Source: Luteolibacter sp. Y139
GTDB taxonomy: Bacteria; Verrucomicrobiota; Verrucomicrobiia; Verrucomicrobiales; Akkermansiaceae
DNA length: 64,000 bases
Reading direction: 5' to 3'
Assembly: GCF_038066715.1 (NCBI RefSeq)
Contig: NZ_JBBUKT010000005.1
Coordinates: 124,001 to 188,000, forward strand
Position numbers and translations under genes: made by a program. Below are positions 43,957 to 56,194 of this stretch, piece after piece; the stretch's first letter is position 1; the number at the start of each line of letters is the position of its first letter. The notes beneath the pieces are model-generated. The model had not been told where the DNA came from. It did not search any database and saw only the letters and a program-made list of their open reading frames with translations.

Positions 43957-43984
43957 TTGAACTCTGAACTCTGAACTCTGAATG
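43957..43984. repeat. Heptamer repeat GAACTCT x3
   Basis: GAACTCTGAACTCTGAACTC TGAA directly before a start codon. A degenerate copy lies inside the portal-toxin gene at about 46537-46565. Confidence 0.85.
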
Positions 43985-44386
43985 ATGGGGGTGCGGGCGA
44001 TTTATCGGAGGGTTTCGTTTTGGCTGGGGTTGTTCGTGGCGTGTTTCATTGTGTGGGGGTGGTGGGATTCGGGGCGCTATCTAACATCGCTGACGTGGAG
44101 GGCGGGGAATGGGATGATGGGTGGGGTTCGCCATGAGGGGGCGACTCATTTGTTTTATGGGATCACGGCTCCGGCGGGGTATTGGCATGTGCCGGTGCGT
44201 GATCCGGAGCAGGTGGATCTGAACCGGTTTTTCGCTCCGTATCAGTATAACGGGGTGATGGAGTCGGGGCATGTGAAGGTGGGGGATGGGGTGGTGCTGT
44301 TCGTTTGGCTGGGGGTGTGGGGATGGTGGATGGTGAGGCGGTGGAGGGTGGAACGTGATGGGATGGAGAGGGCGATGGGGCGATGA
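43982..44386 (+). CDS. RWKSFWLG-family two-helix protein, subtype C
   Basis: 134 residues; start ATG 43982 or 43985. AIYRRVSFWLGLFVACFIVWGWWDSGRY keeps the YR..SFWLG..W.WWDS pattern. The loop is Gly/Met/His-rich; the second helix (VVLFVWLGVWGWWMV) is followed by RRWRVERD. It overlaps the next gene by four bases, implying coupled translation. The start sits in a GAACTCT heptamer array. Confidence 0.6.
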   Translation: MMGVRAIYRRVSFWLGLFVACFIVWGWWDSGRYLTSLTWRAGNGMMGGVRHEGATHLFYGITAPAGYWHVPVRDPEQVDLNRFFAPYQYNGVMESGHVKVGDGVVLFVWLGVWGWWMVRRWRVERDGMERAMGR

Positions 44387-44722: not shown

Positions 44723-44885
44723 TGTGGGGCGGTGCGCAACGCCGTTGGCGTAGGTGAGGTGGTCGGGCGTTACCCAGGGTAGCGAGTGCCTCGCAACCCT
44801 GGGCTTCAGGACGTAGCCCCTTTGGGGCAGTTGGAGGGAAGATTGCCTCGCAACGCTGGGCTGTGTTGTGAAGTCCCGTTGGGAC
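44723..44885. repeat. R2 element with duplicated 3' half
   Basis: ACGCC-gtt-GGCGT; CCCAGGGT/ACCCTGGG; then GCCCC-ttt-GGGGC (the R3-type third hairpin) and a second GTCCC-gtt-GGGAC. It is a chimera of R2 and R3, showing the hairpins are exchangeable modules. Confidence 0.8.
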
Positions 44886-44987
44886 AAGGGAAGGAGGGGA
44901 AGGCGGGGGATGAAGAGGATGGTAGGGATGGTGGGGGCCAGTCGATGTGGTTCACGGGGGTGGTGGGGGCGTGGGAAGATGGGGGGT

Positions 44988-47141
44988 ATGGGAAATGGGT
45001 GTGGGTTGGGAGTTGGTGGTGGGTTCGTGCCGGTGGGGGCGGGGCTGCCGAGGCGGAGGGATGGTGGTGTTGGCGTGAACGCCGCGTCGACCGAAGGTCG
45101 ACACCCCTCAATGGGGTTGAGGGCGAGGCCGGCGGGGTTGTTAGAGGATGATGGGTCGATCATCGTGCCGATGGCGCGGGATCGCTTGCTGGAGATTTTC
45201 GAGCGGGTGCAGCGGCCGGGTGAGGTGGCTTCCACCTTGGAGGGGGCTCTAACAGGTCAGCTGTGGCAGCAGCAGATGCTGTTTCAGGCGATGGTGGATA
45301 CTTGGCCTCGTCTGCAGAAGGCGCTGCGTGAGGTGAAGCTGGCGGCGCGGAAGGCGCCGTGGCGGGTGGAGGCGTATGCGCGGCGCGGGGAGAAGGCGAA
45401 GGCGGGGGCGGAGAAACTGGCGCGTGAGGTGGAGGAGATGGTGTGGGGGATGAAGCCGGATCCGGTGCGGGGCTTGAAGGGCTTCGAGGGGACGGTGGAG
45501 GAGCTGGCGATGGGGTATTTCATGGGGCACCATGTGCTGGAGCCGCATTGGAAGAGGAACGCTGAGGGGATGGTGGCTCCTGTTTCGACGTTGCCGGTGC
45601 CGCCGCGGTTTTATGGGTATCCGCTGTTAGAGGATGGGGTGGATCGTTTGATGCTGGACCGGAGTGGTTCGATGGCGGGTGTGGGTGGTGCGGCGTTGGA
45701 GGATTTCCCGCGGCACCGGTTTTTGATCGCGGTGAATGGGGGGCATAGTGGGCATCCGGCACAGGCGGCTCCGCTGCGGGTGCTGACGGGTTACTGGTTG
45801 GCGGCGGTGTACGGGCTGAAGTGGTTCATGCAGTTCGCGCAGTTGTTCGGGATTCCGTTCCGGTGGGCGACTTATCCGGAGGGGGATGCGAAGGCGAAGG
45901 CGGAGCTGGCGGCGATGATGGGGAACCTGGGGAGCCAGGGGTGGGCGGCCTTCAAGCAGGGGGTGGAGATGAATTTCCTGGAGAGCGGGAAGGGCGGGGG
46001 GAACCTGGCGCAGGCGGAGCTGCTGAGGCTGGCGGATGAGCAGTGCGATGTCTTCGTGCTGGGGCAGACTCTAACAAGTTCGCAGGGGGATAGCGGGAGC
46101 CAGGCGCTGGGGAATGTGCACATGGAGGTGCGGCGGGAGGTGGTGGAGGGGGTGTGCGATTTCGTGGGGGAGATCCTGACGCACCAGCTGATCCCGGCGA
46201 TGGTGGCGGCGAACTACGGTGAGTCTCGTACTGATCTGCCGGGGCTGTGGGCGAAGTGGCCGGAGCCGCGGGATGAGGCGGCGATGGCGCAGCGTGACCG
46301 GGAGCTGGGGCTGCTGGATGGGAAGATGCCGGTGGAGCGGGCGTGGCTGTACGAGCGGCACGGGGTGCCGGTGCCGGCGAGTGATGCGGAGCTTTTCAAG
46401 GCTGAGAAGCCTGAGGCGAGAGACCAGAGGCCGGAGGGGGAGCCGGGTGCTGGAGGGCGCGGGCTGGTGGAGGAACGAACCGCGGAGGCGCAGAGGTCGC
46501 AGAGGAAGCGCGGAGAAGAGGGTGATGGAACTCTGAAGGATGAAGGTGGAACTCTGAACTCCGAATGGGAAGAGGAAGAAGGGGAGGATGAGCCAGGGAG
46601 GGAGGATGACGATGATGATGCTACGGGGTATGTAGTAGAAGCGGCATTCAATCCGGATCAGCCGCGGGTCCCGAAGGGGGCGCCGGGTGGGAAAGGTGGC
46701 GAGTGGACGAAGTCAGGGGGTGGCGGTGGCTTGGGTGAGGTGCCATCGACTCGACAAGGAGCATCGGGAGCGGATGCCAGGAAGAACCGGGGAGGAGGAA
46801 ATGATGGAAACGGCAAACAGCCGAGGGGAGGTGCTCATGGAAAGGTCAAGGGCGTGCCTGGCCGTGAGTCGCATCATATGCCGGCGGATTCGGTGAGCCC
46901 GATTCCCCGGGAGCAGGGTCCCTCAATTTCCATGAAGGAGGAGCATCATTGGGTGACGGAGAGCAATGGCAGTTCAAAAAAAGCCAAAGCCTATCGCGCG
47001 AGGCAGAAAGCCCTGATTGAGCAGGGTAGATTCAGGGAAGCGCAGCAAATGGACATCGATGATGTCCGATCGAAATTCGGCGACGAATATGATGGCCTGA
47101 TGCAGGAGATGCAGGGCTACACTACAAAAATTGGATTCTGA
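44988..47141 (+). CDS. Mu gp29-like portal protein (DUF935) fused to a C-terminal nuclease-type toxin domain
   Basis: 717 residues from ATG 44988; ATG 45111 is an alternative after an R6 hairpin, and the frame is open from 44868. The DUF935 portal region has FEGTVEELAMGYFMGHHVLE, LAAVYGLKWFMQFAQLFGIP and VFVLGQTLTSSQ..GSQALG. It is followed by a low-complexity acidic linker that contains an R1 element in frame (46459-46520) and GGAACTCTGAA heptamers. Then comes FNPDQPRVPKGAPGGKGGEW, a phage head-protein linker motif. The last about 80 residues (ESHHMPADSVSPIP, MKEEHHWVT, YRARQKALIEQGRF, MDIDDVRSKFGDEYDG) match a HH-type toxin tip found on polymorphic toxins. A toxin delivered on or with phage-like particles is inferred. 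Confidence 0.7.
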   Translation: MGNGCGLGVGGGFVPVGAGLPRRRDGGVGVNAASTEGRHPSMGLRARPAGLLEDDGSIIVPMARDRLLEIFERVQRPGEVASTLEGALTGQLWQQQMLFQAMVDTWPRLQKALREVKLAARKAPWRVEAYARRGEKAKAGAEKLAREVEEMVWGMKPDPVRGLKGFEGTVEELAMGYFMGHHVLEPHWKRNAEGMVAPVSTLPVPPRFYGYPLLEDGVDRLMLDRSGSMAGVGGAALEDFPRHRFLIAVNGGHSGHPAQAAPLRVLTGYWLAAVYGLKWFMQFAQLFGIPFRWATYPEGDAKAKAELAAMMGNLGSQGWAAFKQGVEMNFLESGKGGGNLAQAELLRLADEQCDVFVLGQTLTSSQGDSGSQALGNVHMEVRREVVEGVCDFVGEILTHQLIPAMVAANYGESRTDLPGLWAKWPEPRDEAAMAQRDRELGLLDGKMPVERAWLYERHGVPVPASDAELFKAEKPEARDQRPEGEPGAGGRGLVEERTAEAQRSQRKRGEEGDGTLKDEGGTLNSEWEEEEGEDEPGREDDDDDATGYVVEAAFNPDQPRVPKGAPGGKGGEWTKSGGGGGLGEVPSTRQGASGADARKNRGGGNDGNGKQPRGGAHGKVKGVPGRESHHMPADSVSPIPREQGPSISMKEEHHWVTESNGSSKKAKAYRARQKALIEQGRFREAQQMDIDDVRSKFGDEYDGLMQEMQGYTTKIGF

Positions 47142-50396: not shown

Positions 50397-50531
50397 GGTT
50401 TGGGTTTTCGCAGGGCGGCGGGGTGATTTCAAGGAGGGAGGATGGCGAGAGGAGGCGCGGGGAAGAAAGATATGAGGATGCGGGATTGGCTTTTTCTTTT
50501 CTGCGGGGTGGCGGTGTCTATGGTGGATGAG

Positions 50532-51029
50532 ATGGGTCGGCGCTCGGTGATTCGGTGGAAGTCGTTTTGGTTCGGGATCCTGGTGTTGGGGTTCTTGGGT
50601 TGGGCGTGGGGGGATTCGTTGCATTGGAAGATTCGCTTTCGTTATGGGCAGAAGAGCGTGTGCCATGCGGGGTCGGGGATTTGCGTGGCGGATCTGGGGC
50701 GGCTGTTGAGCGAGTCGCCGAGCTGGAGTCGTGGTGAGGTCTCGCCGGATGATGCGCGATGGAGGGAGGTGCGGTTCGATGGGCCGGAGGTGCTTCGTGT
50801 GAGCGGGGACTCGCGGCAGGTCCATGACTACTATGTGGTGTCCAAGGGGGAGAGGGTTTCGAAGGCGCGCAATGCGGCGGCGGTTCACTTCAATGAGGCG
50901 TTGTTTTTCCCGGTGGCTGGGGCGTGGGCGATTTACATTCCGCACTGGGTGGTGATGGTGTGTTTTGCGGTGGTGTGGTCGGTGTTCCTGGCTTGGCGGT
51001 GGCGAAGGGAGAAGAGATTGAATCGATGA
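50532..51029 (+). CDS. RWKSFWLG-family protein, subtype A, array member 1
   Basis: 165 residues from ATG 50532 (MGRRSVIRWKSFWFGILVLG). First helix with WAWGDS, then RYGQKSVCHAGSGICVADLG, a DGPEVLRVSG strand, AVHFNEALFFPVAGAWAIYI and second helix PHWVVMVCFAVVWSVFLAWRWR. The same blocks recur in array member 3. The two conserved Cys and the GSGIC motif invite a disulphide or metal-binding idea, but nothing is known. Confidence 0.65.
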   Translation: MGRRSVIRWKSFWFGILVLGFLGWAWGDSLHWKIRFRYGQKSVCHAGSGICVADLGRLLSESPSWSRGEVSPDDARWREVRFDGPEVLRVSGDSRQVHDYYVVSKGERVSKARNAAAVHFNEALFFPVAGAWAIYIPHWVVMVCFAVVWSVFLAWRWRREKRLNR

Positions 51030-51030
51030 G

Positions 51031-51474
51031 ATGAAGGTGCGGTCGTTTTACCGGTGGAAGAGCTTTTGGCTCGGGGTGGTGGTGCTCGGATTTCTGGGAT
51101 GGGCGTGGAGTCGATCGGTAGGTTTGCGCGATCAGGTTGCTTGGACGACATCGGACCAGAAGAGGAGCTACATGGCGTGGAGTTGGAACGGAGAGCTTGG
51201 GTGGGAGGTTCGCTCTTGGGGCTGGGAAGTTCCATTGGCGATCGGCTTCAGCCATGATTCCGCGTCCGAGCGTTTCGGAAGTTTGGACTATGGAGGATTG
51301 CAGGAGACGGCGTGGTGGGAACCGTTACTCCGAGTGCCGCGGGTGGGGATCGACAGGAGTAGCGAGCGCTTTTTGGTGACGGTTGATTACCGGTTGGTGG
51401 TTGCGGGATTCCTGGTGCCGTGGGTGGTGTTTCTTTTCTGGCGTGGTAGAAGGGTGAGGAAGGGATGTCCGTGA
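51031..51474 (+). CDS. RWKSFWLG-family protein, subtype B, array member 2
   Basis: 147 residues, starting one base after the previous stop. FYRWKSFWLGVVVLGFLGWAWSRSVGLRDQVAWTTSDQ, then RSYMAWSWNGELGWEVRSWGWE and FRVPRVGIDRSSERFLVTVDYRLVVAGFLVPWVVFLFWRGRRV-like end. The loop differs from subtype A (no GSGIC), and the last helix carries WRGRR. It overlaps the next gene by ten bases. Confidence 0.65.
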   Translation: MKVRSFYRWKSFWLGVVVLGFLGWAWSRSVGLRDQVAWTTSDQKRSYMAWSWNGELGWEVRSWGWEVPLAIGFSHDSASERFGSLDYGGLQETAWWEPLLRVPRVGIDRSSERFLVTVDYRLVVAGFLVPWVVFLFWRGRRVRKGCP

Positions 51475-51992
51475 AACCGCGCGCTTTTTATCGGTGGAAG
51501 AGTTTTTGGCTCGGGGTGATGGTGCTTGGGTTTCTGACGTGGGCGTGGTGGGATTCGATCCATTGGGAGAGCTATTTCTGCTATGGGCAGAAATACTTCC
51601 GGCAGGCGGGCTCGGGAATTTGCCTAGCGGATCGGGGATACTCGATGGGTCTGCCGCCCGAGGGGTATCGGCTCCCGCTTGACGGGCAGCGATTCTCACT
51701 ATGGTCCACCGAGGGTGTTCTATGGAGGGAAGTCAGGTTTGATGCGCCGGAGATGCTGCATGTCAGCGGAGATCCCGAGCCGCTGCACAAGTACCGCATC
51801 GTGCCGAAGGGCGGAGACGCGTCCGTGCCACGCAATGCAGCGGCGGTTCATTTCGGTGGGGTGCTGTCGATTCCTGTGAGGGGCGCATGGGCGATCTACA
51901 TTCCTCACTGGTTGGTGATGGTATGTTTCGCTGTGCCGTGGGTGGGGTTTATTTGGTGGCGTGGTAGAAGGGAGAGGAAGGCATGTCCGTGA
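51465..51992 (+). CDS. RWKSFWLG-family protein, subtype A, array member 3
   Basis: 175 residues from ATG 51465 (MSVKPRAFYRWKSFWLGVMV). Subtype A loop (CYGQKYFRQAGSGICLADRG, FDAPEMLHVSGDPEPLHKY) and AVHFGGVLSIPVRGAWAIYI PHWLVMVCFAVPWVGFIWWRGRRERK end. It overlaps both neighbours by ten bases, so the array is a translationally coupled operon alternating A-B-A-B. Confidence 0.7.
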   Translation: MSVKPRAFYRWKSFWLGVMVLGFLTWAWWDSIHWESYFCYGQKYFRQAGSGICLADRGYSMGLPPEGYRLPLDGQRFSLWSTEGVLWREVRFDAPEMLHVSGDPEPLHKYRIVPKGGDASVPRNAAAVHFGGVLSIPVRGAWAIYIPHWLVMVCFAVPWVGFIWWRGRRERKACP

Positions 51993-52444
51993 AACCGCGC
52001 GCTTTTTATCGGTGGAAGAGCTTTTGGCTGGGGACGGTGGTGCTGGTTTTCCTGGGGTGGGCGTGGGCGCGATCCATGGATGTGCACGATCAGGTTGCTT
52101 GGACGACGTCGGGGCGGGACAGGAGCTATATGGCGTGGAGTTCCAATGGGGCGCTGGGGCTGGAGGTGCAGATTTGGACTGGGAATGGATATGAAACTCC
52201 GCCGGCGATCGGCTTCAGCCATGAGAGCCTGTTCCAGCATTTCGGACTTTTGTATCATGGAATATCGGGGGGAACGAGGTGGCTGGCGCCGGGATTCAGA
52301 ATGCCGGCGTTGGTGTGGCTTCACAGGAGCAGCGAGCGCTCGTTGTTGACTGTGGGTTATCCATTGGTGGTTGCGGGGTTCATGGGGCCGTGGGTGGCGT
52401 TTCTTTTCTGGCGTGGTAGAAGGGAGCGGAAAGGAATCGCATGA
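51983..52444 (+). CDS. RWKSFWLG-family protein, subtype B, array member 4
   Basis: 153 residues from ATG 51983 (MSVKPRAFYRWKSFWLGTVV). Subtype B loop (DQVAWTTSGRDRSYMAWSSNGALGLEVQ) and C-terminal WRGRRERKGIA. The N-termini of members 3 and 4 are identical for 17 residues, while the loops follow the subtype, implying unequal crossing-over or conversion within the array. ATGA overlap with the following remnant. Confidence 0.7.
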   Translation: MSVKPRAFYRWKSFWLGTVVLVFLGWAWARSMDVHDQVAWTTSGRDRSYMAWSSNGALGLEVQIWTGNGYETPPAIGFSHESLFQHFGLLYHGISGGTRWLAPGFRMPALVWLHRSSERSLLTVGYPLVVAGFMGPWVAFLFWRGRRERKGIA

Positions 52445-52699
52445 GGGCGCGGCCGTTTTATCGATGGAAGGGCTTTTGGCTTGGGGGTGGTGGTGTTGGT
52501 TCTGATGGGGCTGGCGGCGGTGATTGATCTTGTTCCGAGCAGGGCGGCGTTCCAGCGGCGGGTGAAGAGTCCGGGTGGCGAGTTTGTGGTGTTCTCGTTG
52601 CCGTTTCATGGGGAGGCTTCGCGTGGGTATGAGGGTGGGTTGATTCTTTATCTGAGTGGCTCGAATCAGCCACAACGGAAGACGTGGATGTTTTCGTGA
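52441..52699 (+). pseudogene. Frameshifted fifth array member joined to foreign DNA
   Basis: MRARPFYRWKGFWLGG runs from ATG 52441 into an early TGA. Removing one G from the GGGGG run near 52485 restores VVVLVLMGLAAVIDLVPSRAAFQ in phase. The reading frame then ends about 52699, after a junction near 52668, beyond which the sequence belongs to a nucleotidyltransferase. A single-base slip plus truncation killed it. Confidence 0.7.
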
Positions 52700-53088
52700 T
52701 TTTCAAGCCCGGCTCCGGCATCATTCTGGACCCGAGGCCGGTACTAAATTACTTCAAAAGCAAGGGCTACAAGGAGAGTGACGACCGGATTTTAATTGGC
52801 GGATGGCCAGTTCAGTTCCTCCCGCCTCGCGGAAAGCTTGAGGAAGAAGCGATGCGAAACGCCATTACGTTGGAAGATGACGCCGGCCCCCCGCTTCGGG
52901 TTTTCTCGGCGGAATACATTGCGGCTGTGGCACTCAAAACCGGAAGAGCCAAGGACTTTTCAAGACTTTTGCAATTTTGGGAAAGCGCCGCACTGGACAG
53001 GAGCCAATTCAAAGAGATAGTCTCGCGGCACGAACTCACTGAAAAGTGGCTTGTGTTCAAAAAGAAATTCGACCTAACGGAACCATGA
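52684..53088 (+). pseudogene. 5'-truncated nucleotidyltransferase (AbiEii/MNT-like)
   Basis: 134 codons from ATG 52684; upstream in the same phase ATTEDVDVFVIF continues to the junction at about 52668. EDVDVFV is the catalytic strand Asp pair of the nucleotidyltransferase fold. The C-terminal half is intact: GWPVQFLPPRGKLEEEAM, RVFSAEYIAAVALKTGRAKDFSRLLQFW. The N-terminal GG/GS motif region is absent, so activity is doubtful. Balanced composition marks it foreign. It overlaps the small next gene by four bases (ATGA), an intact toxin/antitoxin-like pair layout. Confidence 0.65.
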
Positions 53089-53258
53089 ATCGTGATGTGG
53101 TATGGACTGCGATCACGGCTAAAAAGCAGGCCGCTCGGCGGAAACTAATGGATTTACCTTGGCGCGAAAAACTGCATCGCCTCGATGCCATGAAGGAGAG
53201 ACAGGAACTCCTCCGGGCAAAAATGAAACGAACTCCGAGCCCTTCAGCTAGCTGCTGA
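53085..53258 (+). CDS. Small basic partner of the nucleotidyltransferase
   Basis: 57 residues from ATG 53085. NRDVVWTAITAKKQAARRKLMDLPWREKLHRLDAMKERQELLRAKMKR is almost wholly helical and basic. In this gene pair type the small protein travels with the nucleotidyltransferase. A toxin-antitoxin role is inferred only from the pairing. An intrinsic terminator follows. Confidence 0.55.
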   Translation: MNRDVVWTAITAKKQAARRKLMDLPWREKLHRLDAMKERQELLRAKMKRTPSPSASC

Positions 53259-53271
53259 CGTGAAAAAATTC

Positions 53272-53306
53272 AAAACCGCCAGTCTCACGGCTGGCGGTTT
53301 TTTTAG
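53272..53306 (+). terminator. Rho-independent terminator
   Basis: AACCGCCAG-tctcacg-CTGGCGGTT followed by T7. It closes the nucleotidyltransferase pair, and is the clearest terminator in the window. Confidence 0.85.
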
Positions 53307-53408
53307 TCTATCAGCAGGGCCACCACTTGTGGCCGCTAGGTTGCGACGGTCGCAGACTGACGCTACATTTTTTGGGAAGGGCTTCGCCGGGGGCTGGCTG
53401 GCGTGCCG

Positions 53409-54983
53409 TCAGGGGGTGGTGCGGGTGGCGGGGGTGAAGGTGGTGGCTTCGATTTTTCCCCAGCGGGTGGTGGTGACTTCGGTCCAGTCGAGGGTGACGG
53501 CTTGGCGGCGGATTTGGGTGGCGGCGGATTTGAGGGTTTCGTCGTGGGGGAAGTAGGCGACGGCGAGTTCGAGGCCGTCTAACAGCATGCGGACGCCGCG
53601 GGTGAAGAGGGGGAGACCGCGGTCGGCGGCTTCGATGAGGCGGGCGCAGGCTTCGATTAGGAAGGGGGAGGTGGCGATGGAATTGGCGGAGGCTTCGGCG
53701 AGGTCGGGGGAGGTGGTGATGGGAGCGTGGGAAGCGTCGGTGAGGTTGCCGGATGCTTCGCTGGAGTTGGCGGAGGCTTCGGTGTTGGGGGATGCTTTGA
53801 TCGAGTCGGGAGATGTTTCGCCGGAGTTGGGGGAGTCGCTGTCGCTGTCGGTCTGGTGCTGGGAGAGGAGGTGCCAGGCGTGGATGACGGTGCCGTCGGA
53901 GTAGGCGGGGAAGGCTTCGTCGAGATTGCGGAGCCAATTGGGCCACCAGGTGTGGTCGGTGCCTTCGGTGTAGCCGAACTGGTGGGTGAAGTAGGCGGCG
54001 ATGATGGCGCTGGTGAAGTCGTCGAACTTGCCCTGGATGAGTTGGCGGGCGCGACTTGTTAGATCGGTGCCGACGGCGCGGGCGGATTCATTGTCGCCGC
54101 GGTGGAGGTAGGCGAGGAGGACGGCGGCGGCTTCGCTGCCGGTTTCCTGGATGATATTGATGGGGTCGGTGTCGCGGGCGTCGATGGCATCGAGCTGGAG
54201 GAGGATGCGGGTGGGCTCGCCGGTGCGTGAGGGGCAGAGGAGGGCGAACTTGGAGAAGGTGCCGCCGCGGTGGTTTTCGAGCTGGAGCCAGAGGCGGGTG
54301 GTGACGGGGACGGGCCCTTTCCAACGGACGAGGGCGTCGGGGTCATTGTAGGGATGAGGGTGCTGGTCCCAGTCGGTGGCGGGATCGCGGGTCCAGGTGC
54401 CCTTGTCCTCTTTCCAGAAGATGACGTCGGGCGGGATGTTCTTGTTAGAGTGATCGAGGGTGAGGCTCTTCCCGCGGATGATGTAGGCGCCGATCTTGTC
54501 CTTGGGGTCGGAGAGGTTCCTGGAATCGGAGGCGAAGTCCTTGGCGCGGCCGACGGCGACGGACTTGATCTGGTGGGCGGCGTCGGTGAGGAGGTCGGCC
54601 TGGCGGCTGACTTCGCGGCGGGTTTCATTCAGCAAGTAGGCCCAGCCGCTGTTTTCATTCGGTGCACTGTAGGGGGCGTGCAGCGTGATGGTCTGCTGCG
54701 ATGCGGTGGCGGTGACTTCGACGGTCTCGCTGATGCTATCGCCATTCGGGAGGGTGGCGCGGAGGTGATAGGTGCCGGGGTCGAGGTCGAGGGACCTGGT
54801 GCCGCCGCGAAGGGGGACGAGTGCGGTGGTGGATGAGCTGCCACGGGAGGGATTGGCATTCACGGACTCATCGAGTGCGCGGCGGACCTGGACGGGGATG
54901 AGGGCTTCGGTGCCCATGCGCTGCTCACTTGATGAAGGGAGCATCATGGGGAGCTGGAAGCCGATGGAGACTTGGGTGCTCAT
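53409..54983 (-). CDS. Caspase-partner protein of unknown fold
   Basis: 524 residues from ATG 54981-54983, overlapping the caspase gene stop by four bases (ATGA). The N-terminal part has LDLDPGTYHLRATLPNGDSISETVEV, a beta-sandwich strand pattern also found at the caspase's C-terminus (TDLPPGEYDL). A middle region (VIFWKEDKGTWTRDP, LVRWKGPVPVTTRLWLQLENH) is followed by SRARQLIQGKFDDFTSAIIAAYF and LRNLDEAFPAYSDGTVIHAWHLL. There is a low-complexity serine/alanine stretch of repeated EAS/EASANS words before the end. No enzyme motif is seen. It is likely a caspase substrate, adaptor or effector; none is proven. Confidence 0.6.
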   Translation of the reverse strand: MSTQVSIGFQLPMMLPSSSEQRMGTEALIPVQVRRALDESVNANPSRGSSSTTALVPLRGGTRSLDLDPGTYHLRATLPNGDSISETVEVTATASQQTITLHAPYSAPNENSGWAYLLNETRREVSRQADLLTDAAHQIKSVAVGRAKDFASDSRNLSDPKDKIGAYIIRGKSLTLDHSNKNIPPDVIFWKEDKGTWTRDPATDWDQHPHPYNDPDALVRWKGPVPVTTRLWLQLENHRGGTFSKFALLCPSRTGEPTRILLQLDAIDARDTDPINIIQETGSEAAAVLLAYLHRGDNESARAVGTDLTSRARQLIQGKFDDFTSAIIAAYFTHQFGYTEGTDHTWWPNWLRNLDEAFPAYSDGTVIHAWHLLSQHQTDSDSDSPNSGETSPDSIKASPNTEASANSSEASGNLTDASHAPITTSPDLAEASANSIATSPFLIEACARLIEAADRGLPLFTRGVRMLLDGLELAVAYFPHDETLKSAATQIRRQAVTLDWTEVTTTRWGKIEATTFTPATRTTP

Positions 54984-56194
54984 GGGACGGGAAGTTTGCA
55001 GTGATCGACGGGCATGCGGAATTCCTTCCTGCGGGTGGCGATGAGCTGGCCGGGATTGCTGAAGGTGGAGAGATCGTATTCGCCGGGTGGCAAGTCGGTG
55101 TCCCAGGTGGTGAGTGTGGGGGGTGGTGGCGGGCCACCGGTGGGCGGATGGGCCTGGGTGATGCCATTTCCGGCGATGCTGAAGAAGGTGGTGGGGAAGA
55201 CTTCCGCGGGGACGGTGCTGACGCGGGCGAGGACGCGGCAATCGGCAGCGGGGATCTCGTGGAGATCGAGGGGGATGGCGGGCATGGTCTGCGACATGTC
55301 CTTGCAGTCGCAATTGAGCGGGAGGCTTTTCTCGGCGGTCATGCGCTTCATGCGTTCGTCGAGGGCGGCGCGGAGGGAGTCGGCGGTGACCTGGAAGGCG
55401 CCGGCGCCGCCATTGTCGCTGGCGCCGTGGTGATTGAAGCAATCTAACAGGCCCTCGGTGAAGAAGGTGTGCATGCCGGTGCGTCCGAGTGCGGGCTGGC
55501 CCTTTGCGAGGGCGGCGCGGTAGAGCGGGACGTGGCGGGGATGGAGGGATGGCTGGGGGCTGAGGAAGGGGGCGCAGAAGTCTTCGCCGGCCTCCTCCTG
55601 TGACTGGAGCTGTGCGCCGAGGTGGGAGCGGCAGGCATCGACGAAGAACATCTGGATGCCGGCGCGGCAGGAGCCCATGCGGGTGATGAGGGTATTCAGC
55701 TTGATGAGGTTTTCGCCGGGGGCATTCGCATCGCTGAAGGCATCCGATGGGAGGAGGTAGTGATCGGTGCCCTCCATGCCGTGGCCGACGAAGAAGAGCA
55801 TGGCGCGATTTTCCTGATGGCCGTGGGCGCGGGTGCGCCACTCGTGGGCGGCGGTGCGGATATTCCTGAAGGTGGCCTCGGGGACGGCGGTGGTGGTGCC
55901 ATCGCTGCGGGTGAACTGGCCGGGCGAGAGCAGGATATCGAGCGACGCGAGCGGGAAGCGGGCCGAGCTGAAGCCCTTGTTCCCGCTCGCGCCGTCGATA
56001 AACCAATTCGCGAGCCTCTCGATGGAGGGGACGGAGGTGCTGAGGCGCTTGAGGCCGGGGGCGTGTCTATCGCCATTTCCACCACCACCGGTGCCGTCTT
56101 CGGCGGGGAGTTCCGTGTAGTGATTCACGCCGATGAGGAGCACGTGTGTGCCGCCGCCGGCGGGAGGTGCTGCTGCCTGGAAGAAGGGTGGCAT
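54980..56194 (-). CDS. Caspase-like (peptidase C14) protease
   Basis: 404 residues. HVLLIGVNHY opens the p20-like fold; the catalytic dyad is His138 in LFFVGHGMEG and Cys188 in FFVDACRS, both present. The fold continues through GMHTFFTEGLLDCFNHHG. A C-terminal beta-rich region (TTWDTDLPPGEYDLSTFSNP) follows. Bacterial caspases of this kind (metacaspase-like) act in regulated proteolysis and, in several defence systems, cell suicide. It lies between an SGNH hydrolase and a partner gene on the same strand. Confidence 0.75.
   Translation of the reverse strand: MPPFFQAAAPPAGGGTHVLLIGVNHYTELPAEDGTGGGGNGDRHAPGLKRLSTSVPSIERLANWFIDGASGNKGFSSARFPLASLDILLSPGQFTRSDGTTTAVPEATFRNIRTAAHEWRTRAHGHQENRAMLFFVGHGMEGTDHYLLPSDAFSDANAPGENLIKLNTLITRMGSCRAGIQMFFVDACRSHLGAQLQSQEEAGEDFCAPFLSPQPSLHPRHVPLYRAALAKGQPALGRTGMHTFFTEGLLDCFNHHGASDNGGAGAFQVTADSLRAALDERMKRMTAEKSLPLNCDCKDMSQTMPAIPLDLHEIPAADCRVLARVSTVPAEVFPTTFFSIAGNGITQAHPPTGGPPPPPTLTTWDTDLPPGEYDLSTFSNPGQLIATRRKEFRMPVDHCKLPVP

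What the first reader, a model, noticed from the sequence alone, without database searches (positions are those of the whole stretch)
52441..53088. A recombination scar: frameshifted array member joined to truncated nucleotidyltransferase
At about 52668 the native G-skewed sequence of the fifth array member changes to balanced sequence in which ATTEDVDVFV starts mid-domain. The nucleotidyltransferase lost its N-terminus and the family member lost its C-terminus, and a GGGGG run adds a frameshift. The small partner at 53085 and the terminator remain.
Basis: seen in the sequence. Interest (0 to 1): 0.5.

Follow-up and report, generated by a model that had tools for sequence, protein, structure and literature searches.

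The report
Broken toxin gene beside intact partner
A bacterial genome carries the back four fifths of a gene for a toxin-like enzyme, fused by recombination to a broken neighbour, while the small protein that normally accompanies and probably neutralises it is intact, and related bacteria show the same one-sided loss many times.

Summary
The junction is real. Array member five starts at 52441, is frameshifted in a G run near 52483, and stops being family-like by about 52655-52668. From 52660 a nucleotidyltransferase (NTase) is read that lacks residues 1-33 of a 175-residue family, including its glycine motif; its stop overlaps an intact 57-residue partner gene (53085-53258), followed by a terminator-like stem. 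GC skew drops from about 0.45 to about 0.05 at the join and recovers after 53300. No intact copy was found in this genome. The intact family is a conserved two-gene operon. The predicted NTase fold is closest to the tRNA-modifying toxin MenT1 (Z 16.1), so a toxin-antitoxin pair is likely. Unexpectedly, the damage is one-sided: in the order and phylum samples 22 loci keep an intact-looking partner beside a deleted, truncated, frameshifted or replaced NTase, against one partner-clade NTase without a partner (five if a partnerless sister clade counts). In two pairs of corresponding loci an unrelated gene stands in place of the NTase while the partner stays. I read the window as an orphaned antitoxin-like gene behind a dead toxin remnant. 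The scar is ordinary gene decay; the uncatalogued operon and recurrent loss or exchange of its first gene are the interesting part. No function was tested.

The parts
52441..52659 (+). 5' part of array member five (RWK[SG]FWLG family), frameshifted in the G run near 52483, 3' part missing
52654..52668 (.). junction zone between array gene and NTase remnant; near it a short inverted repeat GTGGCT/AGCCAC that may be chance
   Evidence: inverted repeat read by eye
52660..53088 (+). NTase remnant, residues 34-175 of the family (stop 53086-53088); residues 1-33 with the AIGGA motif lost, T39-x-D41-x-D43 and GRAKD kept
53085..53258 (+). intact small partner gene, 57 aa, two predicted helices; its ATG overlaps the NTase stop (ATGA)
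53272..53301 (+). terminator-like stem of 13 pairs followed by a T run
53326..53371 (+). diverged copy of an intergenic repeat found at nine other places of the same genome; marks the return to native sequence

Best explanation
The stretch is what is left of a patchily distributed, probably horizontally spread two-gene operon: a MenT1-like nucleotidyltransferase, probably a toxin that modifies tRNA, followed by a small two-helix partner, probably its antitoxin. A recombination event, most simply one deletion by illegitimate recombination, removed the start of the NTase gene (33 codons with the start codon and upstream signals) together with the end of the fifth array gene and fused the two. 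The NTase remnant has lost its glycine motif and should be dead. The partner is intact and survives as an orphan. Losing the toxin is harmless but losing the antitoxin while keeping the toxin is not, which would explain why related genomes show the same one-sided loss repeatedly. Shown: the junction, the truncation, the conserved operon, the predicted fold, and the one-sided pattern. Inferred: toxin and antitoxin roles, the deletion mechanism, and that the partner is still expressed.
For: Truncation at residue 33/34 against intact relatives. Operon: by a motif regex a partner-like gene lies directly downstream, often with the 4-base ATGA overlap, in 35 of 44 order loci and 57 of 81 loci of a second, partly overlapping set; by profile, 35 of 40 near-full NTases in the order sample have it. 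Fold: model of an intact relative, mean pLDDT 91.5; best PDB matches MenT1, Foldseek E 9.7e-7 (8an5), Z 16.1, rmsd 3.0 over 162 residues (8an4); MenT1 is also the only PDB sequence hit of the family profile at E <= 10, though weak (E 0.16). One-sided decay: 22 loci with intact-looking partner and broken or absent NTase against one NTase of the partner clade without partner (G192). Corresponding loci show the loss directly: G082 versus G102 (deletion leaving an NTase 3' end before the partner) and G049 versus G021 (Bro-N gene in place of the NTase, 23 bases of the NTase 3' end left before the partner's ATG). For 11 of the 13 partners without an NTase beside them, compared with the closest NTase-linked partner, dN/dS is 0.04-0.27. 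The window remnant keeps 14 of the 17 columns that are invariant in 39 intact relatives from residue 39 on, and 17 of 18 near-invariant ones, so the loss is recent or the rest still constrained.
Against: No toxicity or neutralisation was measured. The partner has no match to a known antitoxin or family in the libraries searched (one sub-threshold Pfam hit). In MenAT1 the small antitoxin gene lies upstream of the toxin, here downstream. A sister clade of the NTase (G064, G117, G140, G403) has no partner, so the NTase is not always dangerous alone. The pairwise dN/dS values include time before the NTase was lost, and in four of the 11 pairs dS is above 1. Some loci share one ancestral event, so 22 is not 22 independent events. 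The family reads Q, not D or E, at position 86 in nearly all rows, which may be where a third carboxylate would be expected (my recall of the superfamily), so catalysis is not certain even in intact copies.
Confidence: 0.68

Rival explanations
1. The partner is a portable gene with its own use, or a hyperpromiscuous antitoxin domain, that stays in place while different upstream genes are exchanged through recombination; the window is one such exchange, with the array gene as the accidental new neighbour.
For: In G025 versus G102 the sequences part at the NTase start codon and rejoin 2 bases before the partner's start codon, flanks 93-94% identical, and G025 has a four-helix-bundle-like gene there. 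Other partners without NTase sit behind a Bro-N gene (G049, 32 bases away), HepT plus an MntA-like nucleotidyltransferase (G168, overlapping), a DUF2971-like gene (G093, 11 bases), a GIY-YIG gene (G142, 108 bases), a D12 methylase (G136, 363 bases), and in G544 an ORF6N-like gene (by eye) with an NTase remnant between.
Against: Several upstream genes look like housekeeping or unrelated ones (ThiC in G122 and an esterase-like gene in G082, by eye; an aminotransferase class V protein overlapping the partner in G004), and most do not overlap or abut the partner, so many may simply be what lies next to a deletion. In the window the new neighbour is a broken, frameshifted gene, not a functional one.
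Confidence: 0.17
2. A fragment of the operon, already truncated, was inserted into the array by transfer (for instance transformation with a DNA fragment), rather than an intact operon being shortened in place.
For: Composition differs from the native sequence on both sides; the nearest relatives found are only 51-53% identical; the array gene's own 3' end was not found downstream, so the array gene lost it in some step.
Against: A simple insertion into the array gene should leave that gene's 3' end on the far side, and none was seen at 53300-53409 (by eye), so a further deletion is needed.
Confidence: 0.12
3. The join is an assembly error between two unrelated loci.
For: Draft genome in 31 contigs; no reads available; no other genome with the join.
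Against: The junction stretch is single copy, so there is no long repeat there to mislead an assembler, and both flanks lie well inside a 451 kb contig.
Confidence: 0.03

Closest known systems
MenAT1 toxin-antitoxin system (MenT1 Rv0078A, MenA1 Rv0078B)
   Same: Single nucleotidyltransferase of about the same size and predicted fold (Z 16.1); the weak profile alignment places MenT1's T-R-D-V-D on the family's T39-x-D41-x-D43, and T39 and D41 of MenT1 were studied as active-site residues (passages of PMC10435456 and PMC11375011); small helical partner (57 aa here, 68 aa in MenA1). In that paper 15 of 21 menA1 genes lay upstream of a menT-like gene and the others did not.
   Different: Partner gene lies downstream, usually overlapping, not upstream; the partner's profile finds only unrelated PDB chains; no Pfam match of the NTase to the MenT or AbiEii families.
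AbiE / AbiEii (DUF1814-type) nucleotidyltransferase toxins
   Same: MenT toxins are assigned to this family (PMC10435456 passage); the profile hit 8an4 is also named AbiEii/AbiGii toxin family.
   Different: About 175 residues against 287-292 for the MenT3 and MenT4 chains; no PADLOC hit; the small partner is far shorter than AbiEi-type antitoxins.
HEPN-MNT (HepT/MntA) toxin-antitoxin systems
   Same: Contain a nucleotidyltransferase; one partner gene follows such a pair directly (L185).
   Different: The NTase family here has no NTP_transf_2 match, and its usual neighbour is not a HEPN protein.
PanAT (hyperpromiscuous Panacea/DUF4065 antitoxin)
   Same: One antitoxin-like gene retained while the neighbouring gene is exchanged (PMC8832971 passages).
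   Different: No DUF4065 match in Pfam for the window partner; the exchanged genes here are not shown to be toxins.

Membership tests
MenAT (MenT-type nucleotidyltransferase toxin-antitoxin) | Nucleotidyltransferase fold like MenT1 | tested here: met
   Predicted model of an intact relative (L105), Z 16.1 to 8an4, Foldseek E 9.7e-7 to 8an5; the window remnant itself was not modelled
MenAT (MenT-type nucleotidyltransferase toxin-antitoxin) | N-terminal glycine motif and T-x-D-x-D motif | tested here: inconclusive
   Both present in intact relatives; the window copy has lost the glycine motif and keeps T-E-D-V-D
MenAT (MenT-type nucleotidyltransferase toxin-antitoxin) | Recognisable DUF1814 / AbiEii domain by profile | tested here: not met
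   No such match in Pfam for three intact relatives at E <= 5 (one of the three had weak Cas_Csm6_CARF and DUF2204 hits, E 0.035 and 0.22); no NCBIfam match for two intact NTases
MenAT (MenT-type nucleotidyltransferase toxin-antitoxin) | Small antitoxin homologous to MenA1, encoded upstream | tested here: not met
   Partner is encoded downstream; its profile does not find the MenA1 chain in PDB at E <= 10
MenAT (MenT-type nucleotidyltransferase toxin-antitoxin) | Toxicity by tRNA modification, neutralised by partner | not testable with these tools
   needs expression and tRNA assays
Orphan antitoxin | Antitoxin gene intact, cognate toxin gene broken or absent | tested here: inconclusive
   Gene state met in the window and 21 other loci, but antitoxin function is inferred
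PanAT | DUF4065 (Panacea) domain in the antitoxin | tested here: not met
   Pfam scan of the window partner gives only a sub-threshold Acb3 hit, E 0.091

The most novel reading that the evidence does not exclude
The small partner defines an uncatalogued, promiscuous antitoxin-like module: a fixed downstream gene into whose upstream slot unrelated, possibly toxic genes (NTase, HepT/MntA, Bro-N, four-helix bundle, DUF2971-like) are swapped by recombination at or near the partner's start codon, and the window junction is one failed or decaying swap.
Probability: 0.2. Interest if true: 0.75.

Novelty: new variant of a known kind. Interest (0 to 1): 0.48.

Why it matters
The junction itself is a common kind of gene decay. 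What it led to is a widespread two-gene operon, seen in records titled Verrucomicrobia, Acidobacteria, Methylomirabilota and others (80 of 155 relatives listed), with no family match in the versions of Pfam, NCBIfam, PHROGs and PADLOC searched (which proteins went to which library is in the full report), a MenT1-like predicted fold, and a built-in natural experiment: one gene is lost or exchanged again and again while the other is kept. That gives a cheap genomic argument for which gene is the toxin, and a set of corresponding loci with and without the NTase for testing it.

Tried and rejected
Integron-cassette idea: the repeat at 53326-53371 lies just after the terminator and looked like a possible attC site; its other copies showed no cassette arrangement on looking at the flanks printed (about 90 and 60 bases), and I dropped it without an attC model or a look at the genes around the copies. 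A direct-repeat search of 52500-53500 gave only short chance-like pairs and no clear target-site duplication. The search for the array fragment's missing 3' half and for an orthologue in the genus gave nothing usable (one E 0.07 match read is not convincing). The neighbouring caspase-like gene was used to look for a syntenic strain; only this genome has it among 18. A first single-sequence scan of genome contigs found no relative; the alignment scan did. Viral contigs held one relative and plasmids one, 43% identical, so these collections give little support for recent mobility. DNA-pattern and RNA-family searches were not run. Rows set apart in the 22-versus-1 count: G020, G048 and G044:C465 (one shared arrangement with both genes cut), G275 (partner also cut), G061 (34-residue piece) and G516 (both damaged) are not counted; G350 is left out as unclear; of the 13 weak or partial NTase-profile places without a partner, G126 and G055 carry N-terminal pieces that resemble the partnerless sister clade and the other 11 (nine of them starting at model position 20-23, one at 16, one at 7) were taken as neighbouring families without a test; none of the 13 is counted on either side.

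Full report
Setting. The window is contig C5:124001-188000 of a 7.1 Mb, 31-contig genome. By matching contig lengths, G242:C56 (42,574 bases) is JANXMQ010000234.1, an Akkermansiaceae record, and G021:C33 (73,171 bases) is NZ_BATQ01000168.1, Verrucomicrobium sp. BvORR034; G242 is in the same family as the window, so the window is probably from the Akkermansiaceae (inference).

The observation. Array member five starts at 52441; its frame breaks in the G run near 52483, and its sequence has no second copy beyond the first 80 or so bases apart from chance-level matches. From 52660 on an NTase is read in another frame. GC skew falls from 0.42-0.52 to 0.02-0.09 at the join and recovers after 53300. 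The NTase ends at 53088, overlapping the ATG of a 57-codon gene by the ATGA arrangement; a 13-pair terminator-like stem follows, then a diverged copy of a repeat seen at nine other places of this genome.

What the NTase is. In a sample of 288 genomes of the order, 41 hold a relative of the remnant and 48 a match to the full-length profile (60 places at E <= 1e-4, some of them weak or partial). Most intact relatives are about 165-177 residues and begin with the pattern ...AIGGA-x-GATFYLEP-x-[AS]-T-x-D-x-D. The window copy aligns from residue 34 and keeps 14 of the 17 columns that are invariant in 39 intact relatives from residue 39 onward, the other three being conservative changes, and 17 of 18 near-invariant ones. 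So residues 1-33, with the glycine motif, are gone and the rest is well kept.

The operon. Loci around relatives were examined for a small downstream gene with the partner's motif: 35 of 44 loci from the order and 57 of 81 loci from the genome and viral scans; the two sets overlap, since some contigs are in both. These regex counts miss divergent partners. I then fetched all 20 near-full NTases that lacked a profile match to the partner: 15 have a short gene in the partner position (read by eye; motif weak in several) and five (G192, G064, G117, G140, G403) do not. The partner profile itself matches in 50 of 288 genomes of the order and 16 of 387 of the phylum sample at a stricter limit. The partner alignment has five invariant columns, and the window partner is predicted to be two helices (mean pLDDT 87.3, pTM 0.49, so the packing of the helices is not certain).

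Fold. A model of the intact relative on L105 (mean pLDDT 91.5, pTM 0.86) is closest to MenT1 (Foldseek E 9.7e-7; Z 16.1, rmsd 3.0 over 162 residues), ahead of a fungal NTase-like protein (5uvd, Z 13.3), the AbiEi chain 6y8q and ANT(2'')-Ia (both Z 11.8), MenT3 (Z about 10) and others. The profile's only PDB sequence hit at E <= 10 is again MenT1, E 0.16. MenT1 is a toxin blocked by a 68-residue antitoxin that binds across two toxin molecules (passages of PMC10435456) and induces autophosphorylation of T39 (abstract and passages of PMC11375011). The alignment places MenT1's T-R-D-V-D on the family's T39-x-D41-x-D43; that its T is T39 is my inference.

No catalogue entry. The window remnant and partner gave nothing in Pfam at E <= 1 except a sub-threshold Acb3 hit, E 0.091, for the partner, and nothing in NCBIfam, PHROGs or PADLOC. 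Of three intact relatives two gave nothing in Pfam at E <= 5 and one gave weak Cas_Csm6_CARF and DUF2204 hits (E 0.035 and 0.22). Two intact NTases and one intact partner gave nothing in PADLOC or NCBIfam. Intact relatives were not run against PHROGs, nor partners other than the window's against Pfam.

One-sided loss. In the order sample, pairs 60 NTase places with 58 partner places: 40 near-full NTases, 35 with a partner by profile; 17 partners without an NTase match beside them; six loci with an NTase fragment and a partner. Looking at the 17: 13 have an intact-looking partner; G020, G048 and G044:C465 share one arrangement with both genes cut (94-97% identical to each other); G061 is a 34-residue piece. 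Of the six fragment loci the partner is intact-looking in five (G000, the window; G105; G044:C322; G216; G259, whose NTase is probably frameshifted near its start) and cut in G275. In the 387-genome phylum sample four more have an intact-looking partner with a broken NTase: G404 and G550 with internal deletions, G601 truncated, and G544 with only about the last 30 residues behind an ORF6N-like gene. That makes 22 loci. Against them stands one NTase of the partner clade without a partner (G192); counting the partnerless sister clade too (G064, G117, G140 and G403) gives five. At least two pairs among the 22 share upstream sequence and may be single events (G052 and G131; G165 and G004). A one-sided sign test on 16 of 17, an arbitrary discount for shared events, gives 1.4e-4, but detection of the two genes differs as well, so this is only a guide.

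Comparisons of corresponding loci. G049 against G021: flanks 86.5% identical over 780 columns and 89.3% over 1033; between them G049 has a Bro-N gene (Pfam E 1e-10) where G021 has the NTase, and 23 bases of the NTase's 3' end remain before the partner's ATG, so the NTase was there first. G025:C28 against G102:C77: 93.9% over 1273 and 93.3% over 313; identity stops at the NTase start codon and resumes 2 bases before the partner's ATG; G025 has a gene with a sub-threshold 23S_rRNA_IVP match (E 5.4e-6, 27.0 bits against a cut-off of 33.8); which state came first is not known. G082 against G102:C184: 88-89% on both sides; the NTase's 5' part and upstream spacer are missing and its 3' end remains. 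G093 against G110: partner and downstream sequence 93% identical, a DUF2971-like gene (sub-threshold) upstream in G093. In one locus (G168) the partner follows, with overlap, a HepT-like plus nucleotidyltransferase pair.

Selection. For 11 of the 13 partners without an NTase beside them, compared with their closest NTase-linked partner, dN/dS is 0.04-0.27. This includes shared history before loss, and four pairs have dS above 1, so it is support for constraint, not proof of a use after loss.

Reading. The most economical account is a toxin-antitoxin pair in which the toxin can be lost but the antitoxin is kept, with the window as one instance. Promiscuous partner exchange as in PanAT (PMC8832971, passages) is the bolder alternative: it is favoured by the precise exchange in G025 and the HepT/MntA locus, and disfavoured by the plainly unrelated neighbours of several partners. 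Five literature searches (listings of the best 4 of 4, 12 of 18, 12 of 22, 10 of 41 and 12 of 28 papers, and passages of three papers) showed no paper describing this operon or its one-sided loss; that says little about papers not listed or not held.

Noticed in passing
44868-47138 (+): Mu-like portal protein (Portal_Mu, E 4.2e-69): a Mu-type prophage remnant lies between two groups of the array family.
   Followed up: no
43982-44386, 50442-52659 and elsewhere in the genome: The array genes belong to a large family with a conserved RWKSFWLG start, variable middle and arginine-rich end: 71 matches in this genome and matches in 15 of 18 same-genus genomes, this one included, at E <= 0.001. No Pfam match above chance for four members.
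   Followed up: partly
54980-56194 (-): Caspase-like peptidase (Peptidase_C14, E 9.7e-10; PADLOC 'caspase'), found in only this one of 18 same-genus genomes.
   Followed up: no
53326-53371 and nine other places in the genome: Intergenic repeat of roughly 45-60 bases; the matches listed and printed all read on the plus strand of their contigs.
   Followed up: partly
L185 (G168:C55): The small partner gene directly follows, with overlap, a HepT-like plus MntA-like pair, a possible third gene of that kind of system.
   Followed up: no
G064, G117, G140, G403: A sister clade of the NTase with GEP in place of LEP has no partner gene; G126 and G055 carry N-terminal pieces that resemble it.
   Followed up: partly
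L129, L130, L131, L137, L138, L155: The NTase reading frame runs on to 196-230 residues, perhaps a fusion with or frameshift into the partner.
   Followed up: no
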